NCBI GenBank assembly: GCA_016191015.1
Contig: JACPPM010000282.1
Coordinates: forward strand, 1-37,970
Origin: Acidobacteriota bacterium
GTDB lineage: Bacteria > Acidobacteriota > CAIWXX01
Length of the DNA: 37,970 nt
Reading direction: 5' to 3'
The position numbers and the translations under genes were made by a program. Position 1 is the stretch's first letter; every line of letters starts with the position of its first letter. Below, in pieces: positions 34 through 18,385 of the stretch. The notes beneath the pieces are model-generated. The model had not been told where the DNA came from. It searched no databases and saw only the letters and a program-made list of their open reading frames with translations.

Positions 34-1128
34 CTAATCCCTTGCCGCCGCACGCTCGAAGGCTTCCCCATGAAACCGGCGCCGTTGTTCGTTCATGTTG
101 AGCTCCTTGTATTCCGGGTGAATCCGATTCGTCAGGAGGATAAGAATCAGGTGGCTCGCGGGATCGATCGCGAAGCTCGTCCCGGTGAAGCCCGTGTGCG
201 CCCCAGCTCTTTCCGACATCGCGGGACCCGCCACGGAGTCACGAGCTGACTGAAGCTGGAGCCCGATCGAGCGGTGATCGGGGAATGATCCCGTGAGGTT
301 GTCGAAGAAAAGCCCCGCGTCTTCGGGGCGCAGAACGAGCTCGGGGCTCAGGATTTCGGCAGCAATGAGGTGAACGTCTCGAGCCGTTGCGAACAGCCCT
401 GCGTTGCCGGCCACGCCCCCGAGGCTGTAGCAGTTGTGATCGTGCACCGTTCCTCGAATCATTTCCTTCCGGAAGCCCTGGTAGCCAGCGCCGAGATCCC
501 CGCACTTGCGTCGCTCGAATTCATTCCCCCCTTCGGTCGCCGCTATCCGCGGAACGAGGGCGGCAGCGGGATTGAAACATGCGGACTCGAGCCGCAGCGG
601 GCGGGCGATCAACTCCGAGAAGAGGAGATCCAGGGCCGCACCACCGGCTTTCTCGAGGATGCGACCGAGCTGGATGTATCCGAGGCAGCTATATCGAACG
701 TCGCCGCCGGGGGCATACTCCAGGTCAACTCGATCGAGTCCACGGCAGATCTCCTTTCGCTCGTAGCCGAAAAGGTAGATCGGTTCCCAATCGGGCAAGC
801 CGGAAGTGTGAGCGAGCAGGTGGTGGATCTGGATCTCTCGACGCCCATCCCACTCGTACGCCGGAAGGAAACGTCTGACCTCGTCCTCGAAATTGATCAG
901 ACGTTGCCGCCGCAGGACCAGCGCGAGAACTGACGTAGCCAGTGGCTTTGTCAGGGAGGCCAGATCATAGATGGTGTCGGTGCCCGCCTTCACGGCATCG
1001 GGCACGAGGCACGCGGCCCCGCCCGCTCCCTCCTCGATCAGATCCTCTCCGCGGGCAACGATGTACGAGTACGAAGGGAAGTACCCCTGTCCTACACCGT
1101 CGTCGAGAAACGACTTTACCTTCGACAC
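34..1128 (-). CDS. Serine hydrolase of the beta-lactamase / penicillin-binding-protein fold (class C type)
   Basis: Predicted 364-residue serine hydrolase. The nucleophile motif SxxK is SLTK at residues 58-61. The second motif is Tyr-Ser-Cys at 146-148, where YSN or YSD is usual. The third is HTGFTGTS from residue 311, with HTG in place of KTG; HTG is common in the esterase-like branch. Other family landmarks are HHLLAHTSGLPDW near 102-114 and a C-terminal LLTNRIHP. The first codon is GTG at 1128-1126, and no clear Shine-Dalgarno sequence precedes it. No signal peptide is evident, so it may be cytoplasmic. It lies 56 bases after a lipoprotein gene on the same strand, probably in one transcript. 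The family gives esterase, D-aminopeptidase or beta-lactamase-like activity; the real substrate cannot be read from the sequence. Confidence 0.85.
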   Translation of the reverse strand: MSKVKSFLDDGVGQGYFPSYSYIVARGEDLIEEGAGGAACLVPDAVKAGTDTIYDLASLTKPLATSVLALVLRRQRLINFEDEVRRFLPAYEWDGRREIQIHHLLAHTSGLPDWEPIYLFGYERKEICRGLDRVDLEYAPGGDVRYSCLGYIQLGRILEKAGGAALDLLFSELIARPLRLESACFNPAAALVPRIAATEGGNEFERRKCGDLGAGYQGFRKEMIRGTVHDHNCYSLGGVAGNAGLFATARDVHLIAAEILSPELVLRPEDAGLFFDNLTGSFPDHRSIGLQLQSARDSVAGPAMSERAGAHTGFTGTSFAIDPASHLILILLTNRIHPEYKELNMNEQRRRFHGEAFERAAARD

Positions 1129-5636: not shown

Positions 5637-7721
5637 TCAGACCCCCTGCCCACCATCGGGCGGGCTTTCCTGATTCTTGTCCTTGCGGTGGTGCCGGTTC
5701 TTCTCTCCGGCCTGAGTGTCCCCTTCGGCACCATCCTTCTTCTGCTTCGCAGGCTTGGCCTGCGGCTTGTCCTGCGGCTTGTCCTCCCTGGGCGGTTTCT
5801 TGTCGCCCGCGGGCGCCGGCTTCTTCTCAGGCGCCGCGACCGTCGTGCCGCCGTCGCCTCCGCTCGGCGTGGCGTAGCCCAACTCGACAAGTGCCGACTC
5901 TTCCTCGGCCGTGGCTGTGATCTGCTGAGCCTGGGCGAGGCCGGCCAGTTTCTTCTGCTCTTGCGCCCAGATGAGGTGCTGCTGGTGCATGTAGCCTACG
6001 CGTAGGGCAGCGTCGTCGGCGATGTTCAAGTTCTCCGCCGGGTCCTTGTTGATATCGTAGATCTCCCGTTCACCACGGATTCCGTGGATGTAGTGGAATC
6101 CATCTTCACGGACACCATACTGCGGCATCTCACCGGCGGTGCGACCGAAATGCGGCGCGGCTGGCAGGCTTTCACCCGCTGTCGCAGCCGCCAACAAGCT
6201 CCGCCCCTGGAAAGCTCCGGCAGGCGGCGATAAGCCCGCCGCGGCCAGGATGGTGGGCGCCACGTCGATGATCCCGACCACAGCGTCGATCTGAGGCTGT
6301 TTCCTGGGGAGCTGTGTCGGGAGGCGCATGATGAGAGGCACCTTGGCGAATTCGCGATAGAGTCGCGAATTGTGTCCGAATAGACGATGTTCGCCCATCG
6401 CCTCACCGTGATCGCCGAGTAGCACGACCATAGTCTTGTCCAGAAGACCCTGGGAGCGCATCCATGCGAGCAGGCGGCCAACCTGGGCATCAGCATAGTT
6501 GAGGTTCTCGTCGTACCGGCTGGCCATGTACTCGCGGTCCGACGCGCCCAGATCCAACTTCCCCGAATTCACCAGGTCGAAAATCTCTTCGGTCATCCGG
6601 CTCCCCTTGAGAGGGCCGCTGTACGAGCTAGAGAACCTGCCGAGGTATGGCTCGGGCGGGATATGGGGTGCGTGCGGCTCTCGGAGGTGAGCATAGAGGA
6701 AGAACTGATTCTCGCGGTGTTCACCCATCCAGGAAATCGACTCATCCACCACCTCGTTCGCGTCGACGAGGCGCTTGGAGCTCTCCGACCGCTTGTAGAG
6801 CTCGCGCACCGTTCCGAAGCCCCGGTCATAGCCGTAGAGCGATGAAGCATTCGGAGACGCTGTGATCAGCGCGGTTTCCCAACCGGCCTCCTGCAATGAT
6901 TGCGTCACGGTCCTCGCGGACGTCCCCAGACCGAAGCCCTTGAGGACCGAGCCGTGGCGGTCCGGATACTGCGATGTCAGGAGAGATCCCACCGAGGCCT
7001 GGGTGTAGACCGCTTCGGCGTAGGCGTTCCGGAAGAGGACACCTTCTGAGGCGAGGCGATCGATGTCAGGGGTGACTTCCTTCCCGTAGCCGTAGCATCC
7101 GAAGTGACTCGCTCCGGCTGCATCGAGCAAGACGACGAGGAAGTTGACATCATTCCGCCGTGTCGGGACCGGGGCCGGGTTCGGCTGCTGCGGCAACCGA
7201 GTGGACGCCTGCACGCCCCCGCTCCGCTTCTCGATTCGCGGGTTCAGCCACACGCCCACTCCGGGTTTTCCGTCGTTGGTTCGAACGCCCAGAGTGAGAC
7301 GCAGGATGCCGGAGGTTTCCGGAAGCTGCACCTGGACTCTCTTGCCGATGCCGATCTTCCTGAGGACTCTCCGAAACCGGCTATCCTCGAAGATCCTGAC
7401 GGGAGGGTGGCCTTCTTTTGTTTGGACAGATACCGAGTAGAGGGCGGCTCCGTTGCCGGACTGGTCGGGGGCGGCCGCCGCCCCGATCCCGAACGTCAGG
7501 CGGCAGCCGGACTCGTTCTTGAGGTAGTAAGAAATGGAGGTGTCGGGGCGCTGAACTATGCTGACCAGGCCCCCAGAATCTTTCGCCTCCGCCATCGCCT
7601 CCGGTGGTCCCTGGAACTCCGCTACCCCCAGGTTCGCGCCCAGGTCCAGCACCACCGTCCCCTCATCCCGTCCGCCACACGATGCGGACGCCAATAGAAG
7701 GAGAATCAAATACCTTCGCAT
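5637..7721 (-). CDS. Lipoprotein sulfatase / alkaline-phosphatase-superfamily enzyme with Thr at the nucleophile position
   Basis: 694 residues. The N-terminus MRRYLILLLLASASC is a lipoprotein signal with Cys15. Residues 16-185 form an uncharacterised N-terminal domain. The sulfatase domain starts near residue 190 (NFLVVLLDAAGASHFGCYGYG, with metal ligand D200) and includes VVLLGDHGEAMGEHRLFGH and FAKVPLIMRLP. At the CxPSR signature the text is T240-Q-A-S-V before GSLLTSQYP, so the formylglycine Cys/Ser is replaced by Thr. That favours a direct Thr nucleophile, as in phosphotransferases and phosphodiesterases of the superfamily, over classical sulfatase chemistry. The last 75 or so residues are a Lys/Pro/Asp-rich, probably disordered tail. 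The gene diverges from the kinase-like gene, and a good but near-leaderless promoter precedes it. The substrate is unknown. Confidence 0.85.
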   Translation of the reverse strand: MRRYLILLLLASASCGGRDEGTVVLDLGANLGVAEFQGPPEAMAEAKDSGGLVSIVQRPDTSISYYLKNESGCRLTFGIGAAAAPDQSGNGAALYSVSVQTKEGHPPVRIFEDSRFRRVLRKIGIGKRVQVQLPETSGILRLTLGVRTNDGKPGVGVWLNPRIEKRSGGVQASTRLPQQPNPAPVPTRRNDVNFLVVLLDAAGASHFGCYGYGKEVTPDIDRLASEGVLFRNAYAEAVYTQASVGSLLTSQYPDRHGSVLKGFGLGTSARTVTQSLQEAGWETALITASPNASSLYGYDRGFGTVRELYKRSESSKRLVDANEVVDESISWMGEHRENQFFLYAHLREPHAPHIPPEPYLGRFSSSYSGPLKGSRMTEEIFDLVNSGKLDLGASDREYMASRYDENLNYADAQVGRLLAWMRSQGLLDKTMVVLLGDHGEAMGEHRLFGHNSRLYREFAKVPLIMRLPTQLPRKQPQIDAVVGIIDVAPTILAAAGLSPPAGAFQGRSLLAAATAGESLPAAPHFGRTAGEMPQYGVREDGFHYIHGIRGEREIYDINKDPAENLNIADDAALRVGYMHQQHLIWAQEQKKLAGLAQAQQITATAEEESALVELGYATPSGGDGGTTVAAPEKKPAPAGDKKPPREDKPQDKPQAKPAKQKKDGAEGDTQAGEKNRHHRKDKNQESPPDGGQGV

Positions 7722-7824: not shown

Positions 7825-10062
7825 ATGGAGAAGCCTGCTGGCCAGAGGATCGGACGTTACCAGATCGTAGAGAAGATCGGACACGGCCCCATGGGGTCTG
7901 TTTACAAGGCCTACGACCCCATGATCAAGAGGCATCTCGCGATCAAGACCATTCAGGTCGATGCCGCCCCCGACAGCCAGGAATACAGGGACTTCCTTGA
8001 GCGGTTTTACGAGGAGGCGCGCACCGCCGGTAACCTGACGCATCCCAACATCATCACGATCTACGATGTCGGCGAAGACGAGGGGATGCCGTATCTCGTT
8101 TTCGAGCATGTGGAAGGTGAGCTTCTGGCCGAGCTGCTCGCAAGCGGCGCCCACTTCGGCCCGGAGGGGATCATCCTGATTGTCGGTCAGGTCGCTGCGG
8201 CCCTGGACTACGCTCATTCCAATACCGCGCTCCACAAGAACCTGAACCCCGGTAACATCCTCGTCTACCACAAGAACAGGCTCAAGGTCATCGATTTCGG
8301 TATCACCACGCTGGGAGACGCTGATTCGAGTCTCGGGGGCGAGGCCCTCAAGTGGGTTGGATACTTGGCGCCCGAGCGTGCGCGGCCTGATGTCACCCTG
8401 GACCATCGGAGCGACATATACTCCCTCGCGGCCATTGCCTACGGGCTGTTTACCGGGAGCGTGCCGTTCAACGCGTCGTCCGCCAAACAGGTCCTGGACG
8501 GCAACAACGTGGCGAGCGAGTCCGTGCTCCTTCAGGTGCTGGGGTCGCAGGGGTTTCGTGTTGATGCATGGCGTTCGGTATTCCAAACGGCTCTGAGCCC
8601 GGATCCCCACAAGCGGTTCGAGAAGGCCGAGGATTTCGTGCAGGCACTCTGGGATGCCCAGAGCAACGTGTCGGAGTCATTGGAGAATTTCATGCAGGCG
8701 GGGATCGAGACGGGCCGGCCCGCATACACCATGTCAGAGGACCGTGCGGTCACCCTCGCGGCGCCGGCTGTGACAGCATCGTCCCCGTCGCCGCCCCCGC
8801 CAGTTCCGGAGCCTTCATCGTCCGTGGCGACGGTCGTGCTTCCTCCGAGATCAGCCGTGCCCGGCAAAGGCGGCGTGAAAGCGGCAGAGGAACCGTCACC
8901 CGACGCGAGCTTCGTGCCCGAGCAGACGACAGTGCTTCCACCTCGCCCCACGCCCGCGTCCACCGCCCAGCCGACGCGGGAGGCGCCCTCGCCAGAACCG
9001 GAGCCCGCTGCGCCGCCCCGACAGGGACCGGCGCCGACGATTCCCGCTGCGCAGACAACCACGCTTCGGTCCGCGCCGCGCGCAAAAAGCTCCATGTCCG
9101 GCTCGCGCGCCTTTACAATCCTGATCGTCCTCGTCCTTCTGCTCGGAATCACCGCTGGCGCCTATTATCTCTTCACCCGCCCGACACCCGAAGAGGCCGT
9201 CCCGCAACCCGTGCCGCAACCTCCGCCGCCGCCGCCGCCAGCCACTCAGACCCAGGCCGATGCGACGCCTCCGGTTGCCATCGGAAGCCTCGAGCTCCAC
9301 ACGACGCCAGAGGGGGCCACGGTTTATGTGAACGGCGAAGCCGCAGGCCAAACACCGGTCACCAGGAGCGAATTGAAGGTGGGCCTGTATACGTTGAGAT
9401 TCGAGCTCAAGGGCTATGAGACCGTCGAGCAGGCGCAGGAGGTGCTGGCGGGTGTGAGTAGCCCGCAGGTCGTCCAGGTTCCAATGAAGCCGGCCACTCA
9501 GGTGGAATCGACCGGGTCGCTGAAGGTCACATCTACCCCGCCGGGTGCCACAATCATGCTGGATGGGAAGGCGAGTGGAGTCACTCCGAAAACAATCACC
9601 AAACTGCGAGCCGGGAAACATGTGCTCGAGGTGAGCCTGGAAGGACATGTCAAGTGGGCAGGCACCCCGGTCGTCAAGCCAGGCAGGACTCTCGATATCG
9701 CCGCCGAGATGCAACCGGTGCGGACCCAACCTGTGAAACCGCCACCTCCCCCTCCTCCACCCGTCGAGACGGGCCCGTTCGCGCTCGGCCCCGGCATCAG
9801 TTTCGACCGTAGACCGGTCACGGGTGAACAGCCGACTCTGCCGAAGTCTGCGAAGGGCGTGAATGTGTCGGTGCTCGTGAAGATCATTGTCGAGGAATCG
9901 GGGTCTGTCGGCGATATCCGGATTCAGGAGAGCGGCGGGGAGGCGCTGGACCGTATCGTGGTCGAGACGGTCAGAAAGTGGCGCTTCAATCCGGCCATCC
10001 GCGGCGGGAAGGCTGTGAGTGTGTATTTCCTCTACCGTTTCACGTTTAAATCTGCAAAATAG
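7825..10062 (+). CDS. Ser/Thr kinase-like (probable pseudokinase) - transmembrane - double PEGA - TonB C-terminal protein
   Basis: 745 residues. Residues 11-280 form a Hanks-type kinase domain: Gly loop G19-H-G-P-M-G24, ATP lysine K41 (AIK), helix-C E64, DFG at 157-159 and APE at 182-184. The catalytic loop is H137-K-N-L-N-P-G-N144 instead of HRDLKPxN, so the catalytic Asp is Asn139 and the loop Lys is Asn. That predicts weak or absent phosphotransfer. A Pro-rich linker follows, then one membrane helix at about 428-449. Two PEGA domains follow at about 487-555 and 563-620 (TTPEGATVYVNG, STPPGATIMLDG), then a Pro run and a TonB C-terminal domain at about 675-745 (VRKWRFNPAI). The order places the kinase fold inside and the PEGA/TonB part outside the cytoplasm. 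The ATG at 7825 lacks a clear ribosome-binding site. lepB follows 8 bases after the stop. Confidence 0.9.
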   Translation: MEKPAGQRIGRYQIVEKIGHGPMGSVYKAYDPMIKRHLAIKTIQVDAAPDSQEYRDFLERFYEEARTAGNLTHPNIITIYDVGEDEGMPYLVFEHVEGELLAELLASGAHFGPEGIILIVGQVAAALDYAHSNTALHKNLNPGNILVYHKNRLKVIDFGITTLGDADSSLGGEALKWVGYLAPERARPDVTLDHRSDIYSLAAIAYGLFTGSVPFNASSAKQVLDGNNVASESVLLQVLGSQGFRVDAWRSVFQTALSPDPHKRFEKAEDFVQALWDAQSNVSESLENFMQAGIETGRPAYTMSEDRAVTLAAPAVTASSPSPPPPVPEPSSSVATVVLPPRSAVPGKGGVKAAEEPSPDASFVPEQTTVLPPRPTPASTAQPTREAPSPEPEPAAPPRQGPAPTIPAAQTTTLRSAPRAKSSMSGSRAFTILIVLVLLLGITAGAYYLFTRPTPEEAVPQPVPQPPPPPPPATQTQADATPPVAIGSLELHTTPEGATVYVNGEAAGQTPVTRSELKVGLYTLRFELKGYETVEQAQEVLAGVSSPQVVQVPMKPATQVESTGSLKVTSTPPGATIMLDGKASGVTPKTITKLRAGKHVLEVSLEGHVKWAGTPVVKPGRTLDIAAEMQPVRTQPVKPPPPPPPPVETGPFALGPGISFDRRPVTGEQPTLPKSAKGVNVSVLVKIIVEESGSVGDIRIQESGGEALDRIVVETVRKWRFNPAIRGGKAVSVYFLYRFTFKSAK

Positions 10063-10931: not shown

Positions 10932-12494
10932 TCAAGGCTCGACCTGCTCCGGTGACCTTATCAGCTCCCACACCTGCACCATCGGCCCTCCGAACGGCGA
11001 GGGCGCCCAAGACATCTGCGGGTCCGAGTACACTAAGCGGAAGAAGCGGAACGGAGCACCCCGCGCCCCCCTCTCCGGCCGGGCTCGCCCCTTGTCATAG
11101 TAGGCCCGCCACCAAAAGGACACCTGCATCAGCCTAGTGATAACGAATGAACCGCCCGCTTCCCCGGACGGCCGGAGATAGTGAGAGGAGGGAACGCCGA
11201 AACAATTCGCCGACCCTGGCAGACGAAGAAACGGGTTGTCCACAACAACGAATCTGATTCCGTTACGCCTGCAATAGTCGGCGAAAGCTTCTTCGCGGAC
11301 GAGAAATGGGGCGGATTGCGCACCTTCGAAAACCCCCAATCCGCCCATCGTACCAAATCCGTCGACGATCACCGGCGAGGCCGAGGTAAAACTGAGAAGG
11401 TGACCCCAATCCCAGGGAGCCAGGATTCGCCCATGACGCCCACCGTCGATCTCCCTGAGCCGATAAGCGGCCCTGAGCATCGCTCCCGCCCCTCGCGTCA
11501 ACACAGGGGACGGATTCTTCAACAGGCGCCCGCACTCGTAAAGGCTCGGCCCAACTGCCAGCAACGCCGCGGCGAGGGCCAGCCGCCTTCTCCCCCCATC
11601 CAACCATCCCGCAACGCATACACCGGCAACGACTGCTAGCGGACCAGCCAACGGGATCACGAATCGCTTGGTGGACAGCGCGGCGAAACAATAGGCCAGG
11701 GCAAACACGGCGACAACCTGGCCGTCCTTGTCTCGCCGCTTCGTGGCGAGGACGAAGAGCGGCCCCACGAGGAATACGGCTCCGCCCACCACACGGAAGT
11801 CCTCCCAGGCGTTCGCCTCCGGGTCAAAGAAGAGAGGACGAAATTCTACAATTGTAGAAAACCATGGATCTCCGCCAAGAAACCCACTGCCGGATGAAAA
11901 AGCTTCGAGGGCACCGGGGACGGCCGCTGCGGCCGCCGATCCCCCGGCCACGGAGAGGAGGATCGCGAGGCCGCGCGCGGGCCCGCGCGCGGGCCCGCGC
12001 GATTCGCCCCGCCGGGAGACCCAGGCCATCAGCGCGCAGGTAACAGCGCCACCAAGCAGAGCGGCGAAGTGGGGATAGCCGAGGTGCCACTGATCATCCG
12101 GGTAGAGTGGTGGCCTGGTGAGCCGATACGCCATCACCGCGGCCGCAGGCATTGCGAAAGCCGCGCTAGCGGCCGCGTGGAGGCGCGCGACGCCGTCTCC
12201 TGCGAGGAGGATAGCCAGGATCGCGACCGCAGCGGCGAGAATCAAGGCCACCTGCACGAAGACGCATGCCAGCAGGGCGGTGGCCACGAGCGCAGCCGAG
12301 CCCAGGAGCGCGCGCGATGAGCCAGCACGCACGAGCAGCACGACGCTGCCCATCAGGCCGAGGAGGAGCGCAGGCTCCAGGAAATGATGATCGATCGAGC
12401 CGATTTGTGAGGCGTTCACCAGCGATGGAGAAAAGGCGATGAACGTCCCAGCGACCATCCCGGCGGTCCGTCCCATCCAACGGGACATGACCAC
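10932..12494 (-). CDS. STT3-type oligosaccharyltransferase, C-terminal fragment after an in-frame stop
   Basis: 520 residues from a GTG at 12494. The open frame really continues upstream to a TGA at 12521-12519, beyond which lies the N-terminal part of the same gene in the same frame. STT3/PglB/AglB enzymes transfer glycan from a polyprenyl carrier to Asn. Features seen are IGSIDHHFLEPA (family DHH motif, at about 32-42), many membrane helices, and A-P-W-D-W-G-H followed by SPVIVDGFG, the counterpart of the WWDYG acceptor-binding motif. A 12-base tandem repeat at 11969-12001 encodes RGPARGPARG. Apart from the TGA the frame is intact, so the break is recent, an assembly error, or read through. 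The nearest minus-strand neighbour downstream is the possible 37-residue ORF. Confidence 0.7.
   Translation of the reverse strand: MVMSRWMGRTAGMVAGTFIAFSPSLVNASQIGSIDHHFLEPALLLGLMGSVVLLVRAGSSRALLGSAALVATALLACVFVQVALILAAAVAILAILLAGDGVARLHAAASAAFAMPAAAVMAYRLTRPPLYPDDQWHLGYPHFAALLGGAVTCALMAWVSRRGESRGPARGPARGLAILLSVAGGSAAAAAVPGALEAFSSGSGFLGGDPWFSTIVEFRPLFFDPEANAWEDFRVVGGAVFLVGPLFVLATKRRDKDGQVVAVFALAYCFAALSTKRFVIPLAGPLAVVAGVCVAGWLDGGRRRLALAAALLAVGPSLYECGRLLKNPSPVLTRGAGAMLRAAYRLREIDGGRHGRILAPWDWGHLLSFTSASPVIVDGFGTMGGLGVFEGAQSAPFLVREEAFADYCRRNGIRFVVVDNPFLRLPGSANCFGVPSSHYLRPSGEAGGSFVITRLMQVSFWWRAYYDKGRARPERGARGAPFRFFRLVYSDPQMSWAPSPFGGPMVQVWELIRSPEQVEP
11969..12001. repeat. GC-only 12-base tandem repeat inside the STT3 gene
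   Basis: A 33-base run of only G and C, built from about two and a half copies of a 12-base unit based on GCGCGCGGGCCC. In the STT3 frame each unit adds R-G-P-A. The array is in frame and strongly self-complementary. Confidence 0.7.
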
Positions 12495-12518
12495 GGCGAC
12501 GATGGCCGCGAGGAGCGA

Positions 12519-12854
12519 TCAGACGAGCGGGGGGAACCACACAGCGCGATTCAGGACCGAGCCGGCAGATCGGCCTCCCAGCATGCGCGCGGCGCCTCCG
12601 GCGGCCAGGTCATAGAGCGGCGGCCATGGACAGTATGAGCCGGCGGGACCACGATCAGGATCGAATTCCAGGATAGATGGGAAACGTGATGCGGAATGGA
12701 TGATCCGCTTCGCGTGATAGAGCTCATCGAATGGCCGGATCTGAGCGACCCCGCCTTGAAATGCACTCCCGAGGTTATTGACCCTGCACAACCCGGCGAC
12801 CAGGAAGAACGCTGCGCCGACGAGCAGCGACGTCCTGCATCGCCGGTCCTTCAT
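12519..12854 (-). CDS. STT3-type oligosaccharyltransferase, N-terminal fragment ending at an in-frame TGA
   Basis: 111 residues from ATG 12854, with AAGGA six bases upstream. A membrane helix at about 9-22 is followed by the first external loop containing F-D-E-L-Y-H (Asp43), which matches the catalytic Asp motif of STT3 (DxxYH). Then come FDPDRGPAG, CPWPPLYD and VWFPPLV, all in the expected STT3 order. The stop TGA (12521-12519) falls where the family continues WFPP(L/V)(L/V)G..AA, and the same frame resumes with SLLAAIVAVVMSRW. One substitution, for example GGA to TGA, would explain the split. Together the halves give about 640 residues, a normal bacterial STT3-like size. Confidence 0.7.
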   Translation of the reverse strand: MKDRRCRTSLLVGAAFFLVAGLCRVNNLGSAFQGGVAQIRPFDELYHAKRIIHSASRFPSILEFDPDRGPAGSYCPWPPLYDLAAGGAARMLGGRSAGSVLNRAVWFPPLV

Positions 12855-12933
12855 CCTCTATCCTTCAGATCTCATCCTCTGTCCCGTCGGTCGCGCCGTA
12901 CGTCCCGAACCCCCCGCCGGCTGGTGTCCCTTC

Positions 12934-15926: not shown

Positions 15927-18143
15927 TCAGCGGCCGGACAGCGCCCTGGCGGCCTCCAGCTCTCGCTCCGCCTCCGCCTTCCTTCCCATCGCAACCAGGA
16001 TGTCCGCCAGGACAAGATGCGCGAGCCTCTGGACATCAGGATCGTCTGACTTCGCAAGGCCCTCCCGCGCCGTCGCCTCAGCTTCCACGAGGTTCCCACC
16101 CGAATCGGCAATCGACTTCGCCAGCAAAACTCTGGCTTGCCCCCACCCAGGTCGCGCCGAGGCGCACGATCGCAGGTGCGGCAGCGCTTCAGCAGGGCGA
16201 CCTCGTTTGAGGAGGAGGACCCCGAGATTGAACAACGATTCGGCGTGTTCGGGGCTGGCCCTGAGCTCCTGTTGGTATTCGTCGAGAGCCGTGCCATCAT
16301 CCTGCTGCGCCTCAGCCAGCAATGCGAGGTCGTAGTGCAGCCCGGGAAGCCCGGGCCTGATCTTTCGCGCCGCATCGTACTCGTCTGCTGCCTCGCGCAG
16401 GCGCCCGAGTCCCAAAAGACATTCCCCGAGCCGCTTGTGCGTTTGAGCCTCATCCGACCCGACGGCGAGGGCGTCTCGAAAGAACGCGAGAGCATCATCC
16501 AGCCGATCGCCCTCGGCCGCGAGCTCGCCGAGCAGAAACAGCGCCCTCGGGTTCTGAGGATCCAGACGATGGAGCGCGTGGAAAGTCGCCTCGGCTGCCG
16601 ATCTCCGACCCAGAGCTTTCTGCGCCAGGCCGGCCCCGAACAGTCCTGGGAGAAAGTTGGGTTCCAAGGCCAGCGCGGATTCGTAGTGGCGCAGAGATAT
16701 TTCCAGTGCGCCTTGCTTGAAGTTGATGTTACCGGCGAGAAGGTGAGCTTCGGTGACAGCCGGGTCTTGCTTAAGGACCGCGCCGACCTTTTGCAGAGCG
16801 GCGCCGTAGTCCTTCTTGAGCGAGTCGTCAGAGGCGAGACGCAAGAGGTTGAAGAGGGGCAACTTGTCCTTGGGATCGGGCAACGGGGCAGCTTCACTGG
16901 AGGGAAGAGGCGCGCTGGCATAGCCGAGCGCACGGAGAGCATCGAGTGTTTCCGGGTCAGTGGAAACACGGGAAGCGGGGAGCTCTTTTGTCGAGACCTC
17001 GTCGAGATACGCTTTCATCGCCGGTGGGGGAGCGCCTGTGAACACGCTCCGAACTTCACCGGGATCTACCGTGAGGTCGTACGATTCCGGCCGGGTGGTC
17101 TGAACATACTTCTCCGTCAAAATTCGCGCGCAACGAAGAGCCGCCCAGCGATAGTGGAGCTGCGGGTAGAGACTCTCGGCGTAAGCGATCCGGCGGTGAT
17201 CGGGGTGGCCGGCCAGCAGAGGCAGGAGACTCTTGCCGTCGATTCCATCGGGAGGGGCGATGCCGGCGAGCTCCACCACCGTCGGTAGAAGGTCGACGGT
17301 GCGGACGAGGTCCGAGACTACCGTGCCGGGCCGCACGTTCTTCGAAACGACGATCAATGGGACCCTGATCGTCGAATCGTACACAAAGTAGCCGTGCGCC
17401 CCTTCGCCATGATCGCCGAGCCCCTCACCATGATCACTCGTGAAGACGATCGTTGTCGAGTCAAGCCGCGATCCCAGTCGTTCGACCAACAGGCCGATCT
17501 GGCTGTCCACGTAAGCAATCTCGGCATCATAAAGTCCGTACTGCTGACCCCGGTAGCGCGACACGTACGGCTCAGGTGCCTCGTACGGGGAATGCGGGTC
17601 GTAGAGATGAATGAAGGCAAAGAACTTCTTGGCACCCCTCGCGTCGATCCACTTCAACGCTCGATCCATCACTTCTCCTCCAGGGCGCTGGATGGCGTCG
17701 AACGCCTGATTCTCGTAACTCGATAGATCGAACTCGTCGAAGTAGTAGTCGAACCCCTGATTCAACCCGAAACGTCCGTCAAGGACATACGCCCCGACAA
17801 ACGCTCCCGTTTCGTACCCGCCCTCATGCAGCATCTCGGCCATCGTCCGTTCAGAGGGCGGCAGGTAGTACCCACCGTTATCCCTGACGCCGTGGTGAGG
17901 CGGATACTTGCCGGTGAGAATGCTGCAGTGGGATGGGAGGGTGAGGGGTACCGAGGCGATGCAGGTGTCAAATCGTGCCCCTCGCCGGGCCAGCGAATCG
18001 ATCGCTGGCGTGCTGACCCGGGTATACCCGTAAGCCGGCAGATGGTCGAATCTCAGCGTGTCAACCGAGATCAGGACGACGTTCTGCGCGAGGACGGTTC
18101 GCGCGGCGAGCCCACCCAGCAGCAGCCAGCACCTCACACGCAT
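15927..18143 (-). CDS. Sulfatase-superfamily enzyme with C-terminal TPR repeats
   Basis: About 738 residues from ATG 18143; a GTG directly before it is also in frame. The signal peptide ends about A19-Q20 (RTVLA/QN). The sulfatase domain starts at once: VVLISVDTLRFDHLPAYGYTRVSTPAIDSLA. The signature is T-L-P-S-H (Thr at residue 68-69) before CSILTGKYPPHHG, so Thr stands at the formylglycine position, as in many TPR-tailed members. Metal-site text is IVFTSDHGEGLGDHGEGAHG. From about residue 420 there are seven or so TPR units (EAHLLAGNINFKQGALEISLRHYESALALEPN and similar). The TPR part suggests docking to a partner in the periplasm. The GT-C gene follows 11 bases downstream. Whether it hydrolyses sulfate or phosphate esters or transfers a group is not decidable here. 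Confidence 0.88.
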   Translation of the reverse strand: MRVRCWLLLGGLAARTVLAQNVVLISVDTLRFDHLPAYGYTRVSTPAIDSLARRGARFDTCIASVPLTLPSHCSILTGKYPPHHGVRDNGGYYLPPSERTMAEMLHEGGYETGAFVGAYVLDGRFGLNQGFDYYFDEFDLSSYENQAFDAIQRPGGEVMDRALKWIDARGAKKFFAFIHLYDPHSPYEAPEPYVSRYRGQQYGLYDAEIAYVDSQIGLLVERLGSRLDSTTIVFTSDHGEGLGDHGEGAHGYFVYDSTIRVPLIVVSKNVRPGTVVSDLVRTVDLLPTVVELAGIAPPDGIDGKSLLPLLAGHPDHRRIAYAESLYPQLHYRWAALRCARILTEKYVQTTRPESYDLTVDPGEVRSVFTGAPPPAMKAYLDEVSTKELPASRVSTDPETLDALRALGYASAPLPSSEAAPLPDPKDKLPLFNLLRLASDDSLKKDYGAALQKVGAVLKQDPAVTEAHLLAGNINFKQGALEISLRHYESALALEPNFLPGLFGAGLAQKALGRRSAAEATFHALHRLDPQNPRALFLLGELAAEGDRLDDALAFFRDALAVGSDEAQTHKRLGECLLGLGRLREAADEYDAARKIRPGLPGLHYDLALLAEAQQDDGTALDEYQQELRASPEHAESLFNLGVLLLKRGRPAEALPHLRSCASARPGWGQARVLLAKSIADSGGNLVEAEATAREGLAKSDDPDVQRLAHLVLADILVAMGRKAEAERELEAARALSGR

Positions 18144-18145
18144 CA

Positions 18146-18385
18146 CTATACCATCGCCGGCGCCATGTTACTGCTCTGGTGCGACGTCGAGTAGCGATCG
18201 TCAATCACCGGGCTGATCACCGGCCGCCGCAAACCTCGCTTGCAACGGCGTTTCACGGCGCTCCAATACCGATGTGATTCTGGCTCCTTGATCCGCTTCT
18301 CGGCTCTCAAAACCGTATTCTCTGGAACCCACCTCCACACGTGATCACCAGTGTGGGTCGGCACGACACGCATCATCGTCTCCAT
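18146..18385 (-). CDS. Possible 79-residue basic protein upstream of the sulfatase-TPR gene
   Basis: ATG at 18385-18383 with GAAGGG five bases upstream. The frame ends in a TAG (18148-18146) that abuts the sulfatase start. The text is rich in Arg and Lys (RAEKRIKEP, AVKRRCKRGLRRPV). Tight spacing to the next gene supports translation. Codon use is less GC-biased at third positions than in neighbours, and no family is recognised, so it may be chance. Confidence 0.22.
   Translation of the reverse strand: METMMRVVPTHTGDHVWRWVPENTVLRAEKRIKEPESHRYWSAVKRRCKRGLRRPVISPVIDDRYSTSHQSSNMAPAMV

What the first reader, a model, noticed from the sequence alone, without database searches (positions are those of the whole stretch)
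7825..10062. Probable pseudokinase fused to double PEGA and TonB C-terminal domains
The Gly loop, ATP Lys41, helix-C Glu64, DFG and APE are intact, but HRDLKPxN reads H-K-N-L-N-P-G-N, so both the catalytic Asp and the loop Lys are Asn. Such a protein could bind ATP and signal without phosphotransfer, while PEGA repeats and a TonB C-terminal domain face outward. This combination, directly before lepB, is unusual.
Basis: partly seen in the sequence, partly recalled or inferred. Interest (0 to 1): 0.62.

Follow-up and report, generated by a model that had tools for sequence, protein, structure and literature searches.

The report
Lineage-specific dead kinase receptor protein
In this bacterium, a membrane-spanning kinase found in several related bacteria has lost the residues that transfer phosphate but kept those that hold ATP, so it probably works as an ATP-binding signalling scaffold instead of an enzyme.

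Summary
Window 7825-10062 (+) encodes 745 aa: a PknB-like kinase domain, a TM helix, two PEGA domains and a TonB C-terminal domain, followed 5 bp later by lepB. The catalytic loop reads HKNLNPGN.

Orthologues with the same architecture occur in the one held same-family genome (also directly before lepB) and in 12 genomes of another family of the phylum. All 13 keep HRD[IV]KP[SA]N and GTPxYMSPEQ. Only the window copy has lost R138, D139, K141, the activation-loop Thr (T169S), and G176-T177-P178 (KWV). All 11 nucleotide/Mg residues remain. Changes span several codons, the frame is open and codon composition is normal, so this is neither a sequencing error nor visible pseudogene decay. The kinase domain evolved about five times faster than its sister's; the PEGA/TonB part did not.

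I judge it a real, recently derived, probably nucleotide-binding pseudokinase receptor (0.85 for loss of canonical phosphotransfer). How it signals is inference. The architecture and lepB linkage are conserved, so they are not the unusual part; the Asp/Lys/Thr loss is. In the other family an FHA-zinc ribbon-RDD gene sits between kinase and lepB; no full-length copy was found here. New member of a known kind.

The parts
7825..10062 (+). whole gene: pseudokinase - linker - TM - 2x PEGA - TonB_C, 745 aa
7858..8655 (+). kinase-fold domain, residues 12-277; closest solved kinases by sequence and fold are PknB-type
   Evidence: Pfam Pkinase; AlphaFold2 pLDDT 87, pTM 0.87; Foldseek top hits PknB/Stk1/PknA
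8233..8256 (+). degenerate catalytic loop HKNLNPGN (residues 137-144; HRDxKPxN in all 13 orthologues)
8293..8388 (+). DFG (157-159) kept; degenerate activation segment and P+1 loop (T169S, GTP 176-178 to KWV, SPEQ to APER)
8677..9105 (+). Pro/Thr-rich cytosolic linker (residues 285-427) with TxxL-type sites at 336 (TVVL) and 368 (TTVL), and TTTL at 411
9106..9177 (+). single transmembrane helix, about residues 428-451
   Evidence: hydropathy scan, (best 19-residue window 432-450, mean 2.47; the only segment above 1.6)
9283..9489 (+). PEGA domain 1 (residues 487-555)
   Evidence: Pfam PF08308, two stretches; all-beta model
9514..9720 (+). PEGA domain 2 (residues 564-632)
   Evidence: Pfam PF08308; all-beta model
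9832..10050 (+). TonB C-terminal domain (about residues 670-742)
   Evidence: Pfam PF03544 E 2.7e-11; TIGR01352 above its cut-off; Foldseek to TonB CTD in 6i97_D, TMt 0.84, 32% identity
10068..10673 (+). lepB, signal peptidase I, probably co-transcribed (5-8 bp after the stop)
   Evidence: Pfam PF10502; TIGR02227 above its cut-off

Best explanation
The gene encodes a single-pass inner-membrane receptor-type protein whose cytosolic PknB-like domain has recently lost canonical phosphotransfer while keeping a fold and residues suited to bind Mg-ATP. Its ancestor was an active-looking kinase of the same architecture. Shown here by sequence: loss of catalytic Asp, catalytic-loop Lys, P+1 Thr and activation-loop Thr; retention of all 11 nucleotide/Mg residues; kinase-domain-only acceleration; conserved outer part; linkage to lepB. 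Inferred: with ATP bound, the domain acts as a conformational scaffold or allosteric partner. Outside cues would come through PEGA/TonB_C, and Thr sites in the linker may be phosphorylated in trans by some of the other kinases of this genome (66 other kinase domains keep the HRD Asp), so that the protein presents docking sites instead of making them.
For: Orthologues: 13 of 13 (G001 plus 12 genomes of family f38) keep D, K, N, GTP, SPEQ and the activation-loop Thr; the window alone differs. Orthology: window and G001 are sisters (98*), near the f38 clade. Rates: kinase end branch 0.99 against 0.20 for the sister, PEGA/TonB part 0.32 against 0.44; of 146 kinase columns invariant in f38, 30 changed only in the window and 9 only in G001 (binomial p 0.001). 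Nucleotide/Mg columns: 0 of 11 changed, against 11 of the other 38 conserved columns (Fisher p 0.05). Constraint: GC by codon position of the kinase part 0.63/0.39/0.78, as in lepB 0.62/0.40/0.79; no stop. Fold: pLDDT 87, PknB nearest. Equivalents of the PknB back-to-back dimer residues R10, L33, D76 (recalled from memory, mapped by hand on the alignment) are R11, I34, D81, invariant in all orthologues. Linker TxxL sites: 2 against 0.07 expected (p 0.006).
Against: No activity, ATP-binding or expression data exist. Some kinases with an altered HRD Asp keep weak activity (HER3, from memory). Faster evolution of the kinase domain could be the start of decay. Retention of the ATP site is only marginally beyond chance against other conserved columns. 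The dimer residues are common in PknB-like kinases, so their retention is weak evidence. In-trans phosphorylation and the partner are not identified. There is only one pseudokinase genome, so selection on the dead state cannot be measured.
Confidence: 0.65

Rival explanations
1. The kinase domain is in early decay: the periplasmic PEGA-TonB_C part still has a job, and the dead kinase domain is only a tolerated cytosolic anchor.
For: Kinase part five times faster than the sister's while the outer part is not; losses concentrate in function-critical columns.
Against: Open frame, normal codon-position composition, confident fold, all nucleotide/Mg, Glu64, APE, D197 and R264 positions kept. Neutral decay should also hit these.
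Confidence: 0.18
2. The protein is still an active, atypical kinase or another ATP-using transferase (AMPylation, glutamylation) that uses different residues.
For: ATP/Mg residues are complete. Bacterial kinase-fold proteins with altered motifs can have new activities: SidJ, SelO (PMC12599244).
Against: Asp139, Lys141 and Thr177, which together hold the phosphotransfer network in Hanks kinases (established knowledge), are all gone. No substitute acidic residue is evident next to the loop. The motif patterns of SelO and SidJ listed are different.
Confidence: 0.12
3. Sequencing or assembly artefact in a metagenome bin.
For: All 13 orthologues have HRD; only one genome carries the change.
Against: Changes at K138, N139, N141, S169, K176, W177, V178 and R185 need many base changes, with no frameshift and with composition equal to lepB; the bin is rated 100% complete with 0.31% contamination.
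Confidence: 0.03

Closest known systems
Active-looking kinase-TM-2xPEGA-TonB_C orthologues (G001 C126; 12 genomes of family f38; no published name found)
   Same: full-length homology, same domain order, lepB close downstream
   Different: HRDxKPxN, GTPxYMSPEQ and activation-loop Thr intact; f38 has an FHA-zinc ribbon-RDD gene between kinase and lepB (checked in 6 genomes)
PknB/Stk1 PASTA receptor kinases
   Same: closest solved kinase domain by sequence and fold; cytosolic kinase, one TM, external repeats
   Different: PASTA instead of PEGA/TonB_C; catalytically active
MviN (ActPs3) pseudokinase of mycobacteria
   Same: membrane protein with a pseudokinase domain; the phosphorylated pseudokinase domain binds an FHA protein, FhaA (PMC11898655)
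   Different: VALT, no HRD, no DFG (PMC12599244); domain of a lipid II flippase; here the ATP and DFG residues are intact
ActPs2 pseudokinases
   Same: HRD Asp to Asn
   Different: ActPs2 also has Lys to Arg, mostly loses DFG, and is predominantly actinobacterial
CP1 pseudokinases (e.g. Leptospira Q8F1M0, Hkslcpgn)
   Same: similar-looking loop HKxLxPGN
   Different: CP1 lacks TM regions and its pseudokinases are fused to COG3899; neither fits here

Membership tests
Hanks-type (PknB-like) kinase fold | bilobal protein kinase domain | tested here: met
   Pfam PF00069 E 1e-39; model pLDDT 87 with PknB as top fold match
Active Hanks-type kinase | HRD catalytic Asp, VAIK Lys and DFG Asp | tested here: not met
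   Asp139 is Asn; Lys41 and Asp157 are present
Pseudokinase (definition in PMC12599244) | at least one of beta3 Lys, HRD Asp, DFG Asp missing | tested here: met
   HRD Asp is Asn, plus loss of K141 and T177
Pseudokinase | no phosphotransfer activity measured | not testable with these tools
   needs a biochemical assay
ActPs2 pseudokinases | beta3 Lys to Arg and DFG deletion besides HRN | tested here: not met
   K41 and DFG present
CP1 pseudokinases | COG3899 fusion, no TM | tested here: not met
   TM at 428-451; no ATPase domain in the Pfam scan
PEGA domain protein | Pfam PF08308 above gathering score | tested here: met
   104 bits, cut-off 20.8, two stretches
TonB C-terminal domain | PF03544/TIGR01352 above cut-off and TonB CTD fold | tested here: met
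   44.2 bits against 24.6; 45.9 against 27.1; 6i97_D TMt 0.84
Energy-transducing TonB | N-terminal TM that couples to ExbB/ExbD | tested here: inconclusive
   the TM is internal (about 428-451) and shows no obvious TonB-type His by eye; coupling was not tested

The most novel reading that the evidence does not exclude
A recent, traceable kinase-to-pseudokinase conversion of a whole receptor: the FHA partner gene is absent from this family, and then in one lineage the phosphotransfer network (Asp, Lys, P+1 Thr, activation-loop Thr) was lost together while ATP site, linker phospho-sites and outer sensor stayed. This would turn an enzyme into an ATP-gated docking scaffold phosphorylated in trans.
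Probability: 0.3. Interest if true: 0.55.

Novelty: new member of a known kind. Interest (0 to 1): 0.4.

Why it matters
Bacterial pseudokinases are known but little studied experimentally (PMC12599244). This one comes with 13 orthologues of identical architecture whose catalytic motifs are intact, so it offers a before/after pair for asking what a receptor kinase still does once catalysis is removed by evolution, and whether ATP binding alone is kept for signalling. It also points to a conserved locus kinase(-FHA-RDD)-lepB, with a sensor made of PEGA and TonB C-terminal domains, for which my literature searches found no description.

Tried and rejected
Sequencing error (rejected: scattered multi-codon changes). 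Intact second copy in the same genome (rejected: no second PEGA-PEGA-TonB_C match at E <= 1e-15). Pseudokinases as common in this genome (rejected: 66 of 68 other kinase domains with a readable loop keep Asp). Membership in ActPs2 or CP1 (rejected). The FHA-RDD gene moved elsewhere in this genome: only FHA-level or RDD-level partial matches in G000 and G001, so loss here or gain in f38 cannot be told apart. The search for related loci in named genomes gave only distant kinases, so the organism could not be named. Literature searches for PEGA + pseudokinase, PEGA + TonB kinase and PknB D138N gave nothing useful. Gee et al. 2012 not held.

Full report
OBSERVATION. The ORF 7825-10062 (+) runs from ATG to TAG and encodes 745 aa. 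Pfam finds Pkinase 12-277, two PEGA stretches and TonB_C 676-742. A single TM helix lies at about 428-451, with the basic stretch APRAKSSMSGSR just before it, so N-in/C-out topology is expected. The catalytic loop codons CAC AAG AAC CTG AAC CCC GGT AAC read HKNLNPGN. It missed that the P+1 motif GTP is KWV, that the activation-loop Thr is Ser169 and that SPEQ is APER.

SETTING. The window is contig C250 of a 6.43 Mb bin in 349 contigs, rated 100% complete and 0.31% contaminated, with 72 kinase-like places. lepB starts 5-8 bp after the stop, so co-transcription is likely. The upstream gene (5637-7721) is a sulfatase-type protein on the other strand.

ORTHOLOGUES. The class holds only two genomes. 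The other, G001, has a 771-aa protein of the same architecture directly before lepB, with IIHRDVKPSNIL and GTPCYMSPEQ. A phylum search found full-length relatives in family f38, and 12 of 14 f38 genomes carry one. In the alignment all 13 orthologues keep HRD[IV]KP[SA]N, DFG, GTPxYMSPEQ and the activation-loop Thr; the window alone departs. The kinase tree joins window and G001 with starred support, near the f38 clade. No second copy of the PEGA-TonB_C part was found in the genome, so the dead form is not a spare duplicate of an intact one.

ERROR OR DECAY? Against 54 relatives, 49 kinase columns are conserved in at least 90%. The window differs at 11 of them, G001 at 3, and nearly all of the closest relatives at 0-2. 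Eight changes are private to the window relative to G001: R138K, D139N, K141N, T169S, G176K, T177W, Q185R, K259P. Seven of these lie in the catalytic loop and the activation/P+1 segment. Asp, Lys and P+1 Thr form one hydrogen-bond network in Hanks kinases (established knowledge), so their joint loss is coherent. Such spread, in a frame with codon-position GC 0.63/0.39/0.78 (lepB 0.62/0.40/0.79), is not a base-calling error. The kinase end branch is 0.99 against 0.20 in the sister, whereas the PEGA/TonB part is 0.32 against 0.44. Of 146 columns invariant in f38, 30 changed only in the window and 9 only in G001 (p 0.001). So constraint changed in the kinase domain alone. All 11 nucleotide/Mg residues (G19, G21, G24, V26, A39, K41, E64, N144, D157, F158, G159) are kept; 0 of 11 against 11 of 38 other conserved columns changed (Fisher p 0.05), which is suggestive only.

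STRUCTURE. The kinase model has pLDDT 87 and pTM 0.87; confidence is lowest in the activation loop (163-169) and is also low around 221-240 and at the C-terminal tail. The best fold matches are PknB, Stk1 and PknA. The outer part gives all-beta domains and a TonB C-terminal domain matching the TonB CTD bound to FoxA, 6i97_D, TMt 0.84. Relative domain placement is undefined (pTM 0.38).

CONTEXT THAT MAY EXPLAIN IT. In f38 the gene after the kinase is an FHA-double zinc ribbon-RDD membrane protein (Pfam), found directly downstream in all six f38 genomes searched (in one of them, G404, in two pieces). lepB follows in the loci with enough flank. Kinase linkers carry T[VILMT][VILM][LIMV] sites beyond shuffled expectation in several orthologues (9 against 0.38; 6 against 0.16) but in others not at all. 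The window keeps two (p 0.006). FHA domains read phospho-Thr (established knowledge), so an ancestral circuit kinase - linker pThr - FHA protein is a reasonable inference. In f1 no full-length FHA-RDD gene was found in either genome. The window then also lost catalysis. Phosphorylated pseudokinase plus FHA protein is a known arrangement in mycobacteria: MviN and FhaA (PMC11898655).

BASELINE. Among 68 other kinase domains in this genome with a readable loop, 66 keep the Asp. The exceptions are L119 (HGALSPVD, HFN) and L125 (HGGIKPHN). The window protein is thus one of about three pseudokinases here; L119 lacks DFG, and the ATP site of L125 was not fully read.

MECHANISM. Most likely a non-catalytic receptor that binds Mg-ATP and signals by conformation, dimer contacts or linker Thr phosphorylated in trans. 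The PknB dimer equivalents R11, I34 and D81 are kept, but such residues are widespread. Only the sequence steps are shown; binding, partners and output are inferred.

NOVELTY. Bacterial pseudokinases are known (review PMC12599244). This one fits neither of the two families tested (ActPs2, CP1), and kinase-PEGA-TonB_C proteins were not found in the held literature. The architecture itself is a shared, apparently active family. I rate it a new member of a known kind, interest 0.4.

Noticed in passing
window 10932-12860 (-): STT3/AglB-like oligosaccharyl transferase (TIGR04154 match E 1e-20 but far below its cut-off; DELYH and WDWG-like motifs by eye) whose frame is interrupted by one in-frame TGA at 12519-12521; the N-terminal part continues upstream in the same frame.
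   Followed up: partly
L081 6754-8046, L083 2515-3858 and four further f38 genomes: FHA-double zinc ribbon-RDD membrane protein encoded between the PEGA-TonB_C kinase and lepB in family f38; no full-length copy in this genome or its sister.
   Followed up: partly
L119 (G000 C207 17200-18500, - strand): Second pseudokinase in the same genome: HGALSPVD for HRDxKPxN and HFN for DFG.
   Followed up: no
L125 (G000 C259 6400-7700): Third kinase-like domain without HRD: HGGIKPHN.
   Followed up: no
L077 linker: Kinase linker with nine TVVM/TVLM-type sites, a likely array of phospho-Thr docking sites.
   Followed up: no
window 15927-18146 (-): Sulfatase fused to TPR repeats; a second sulfatase-type protein besides the one at 5637-7721.
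   Followed up: no
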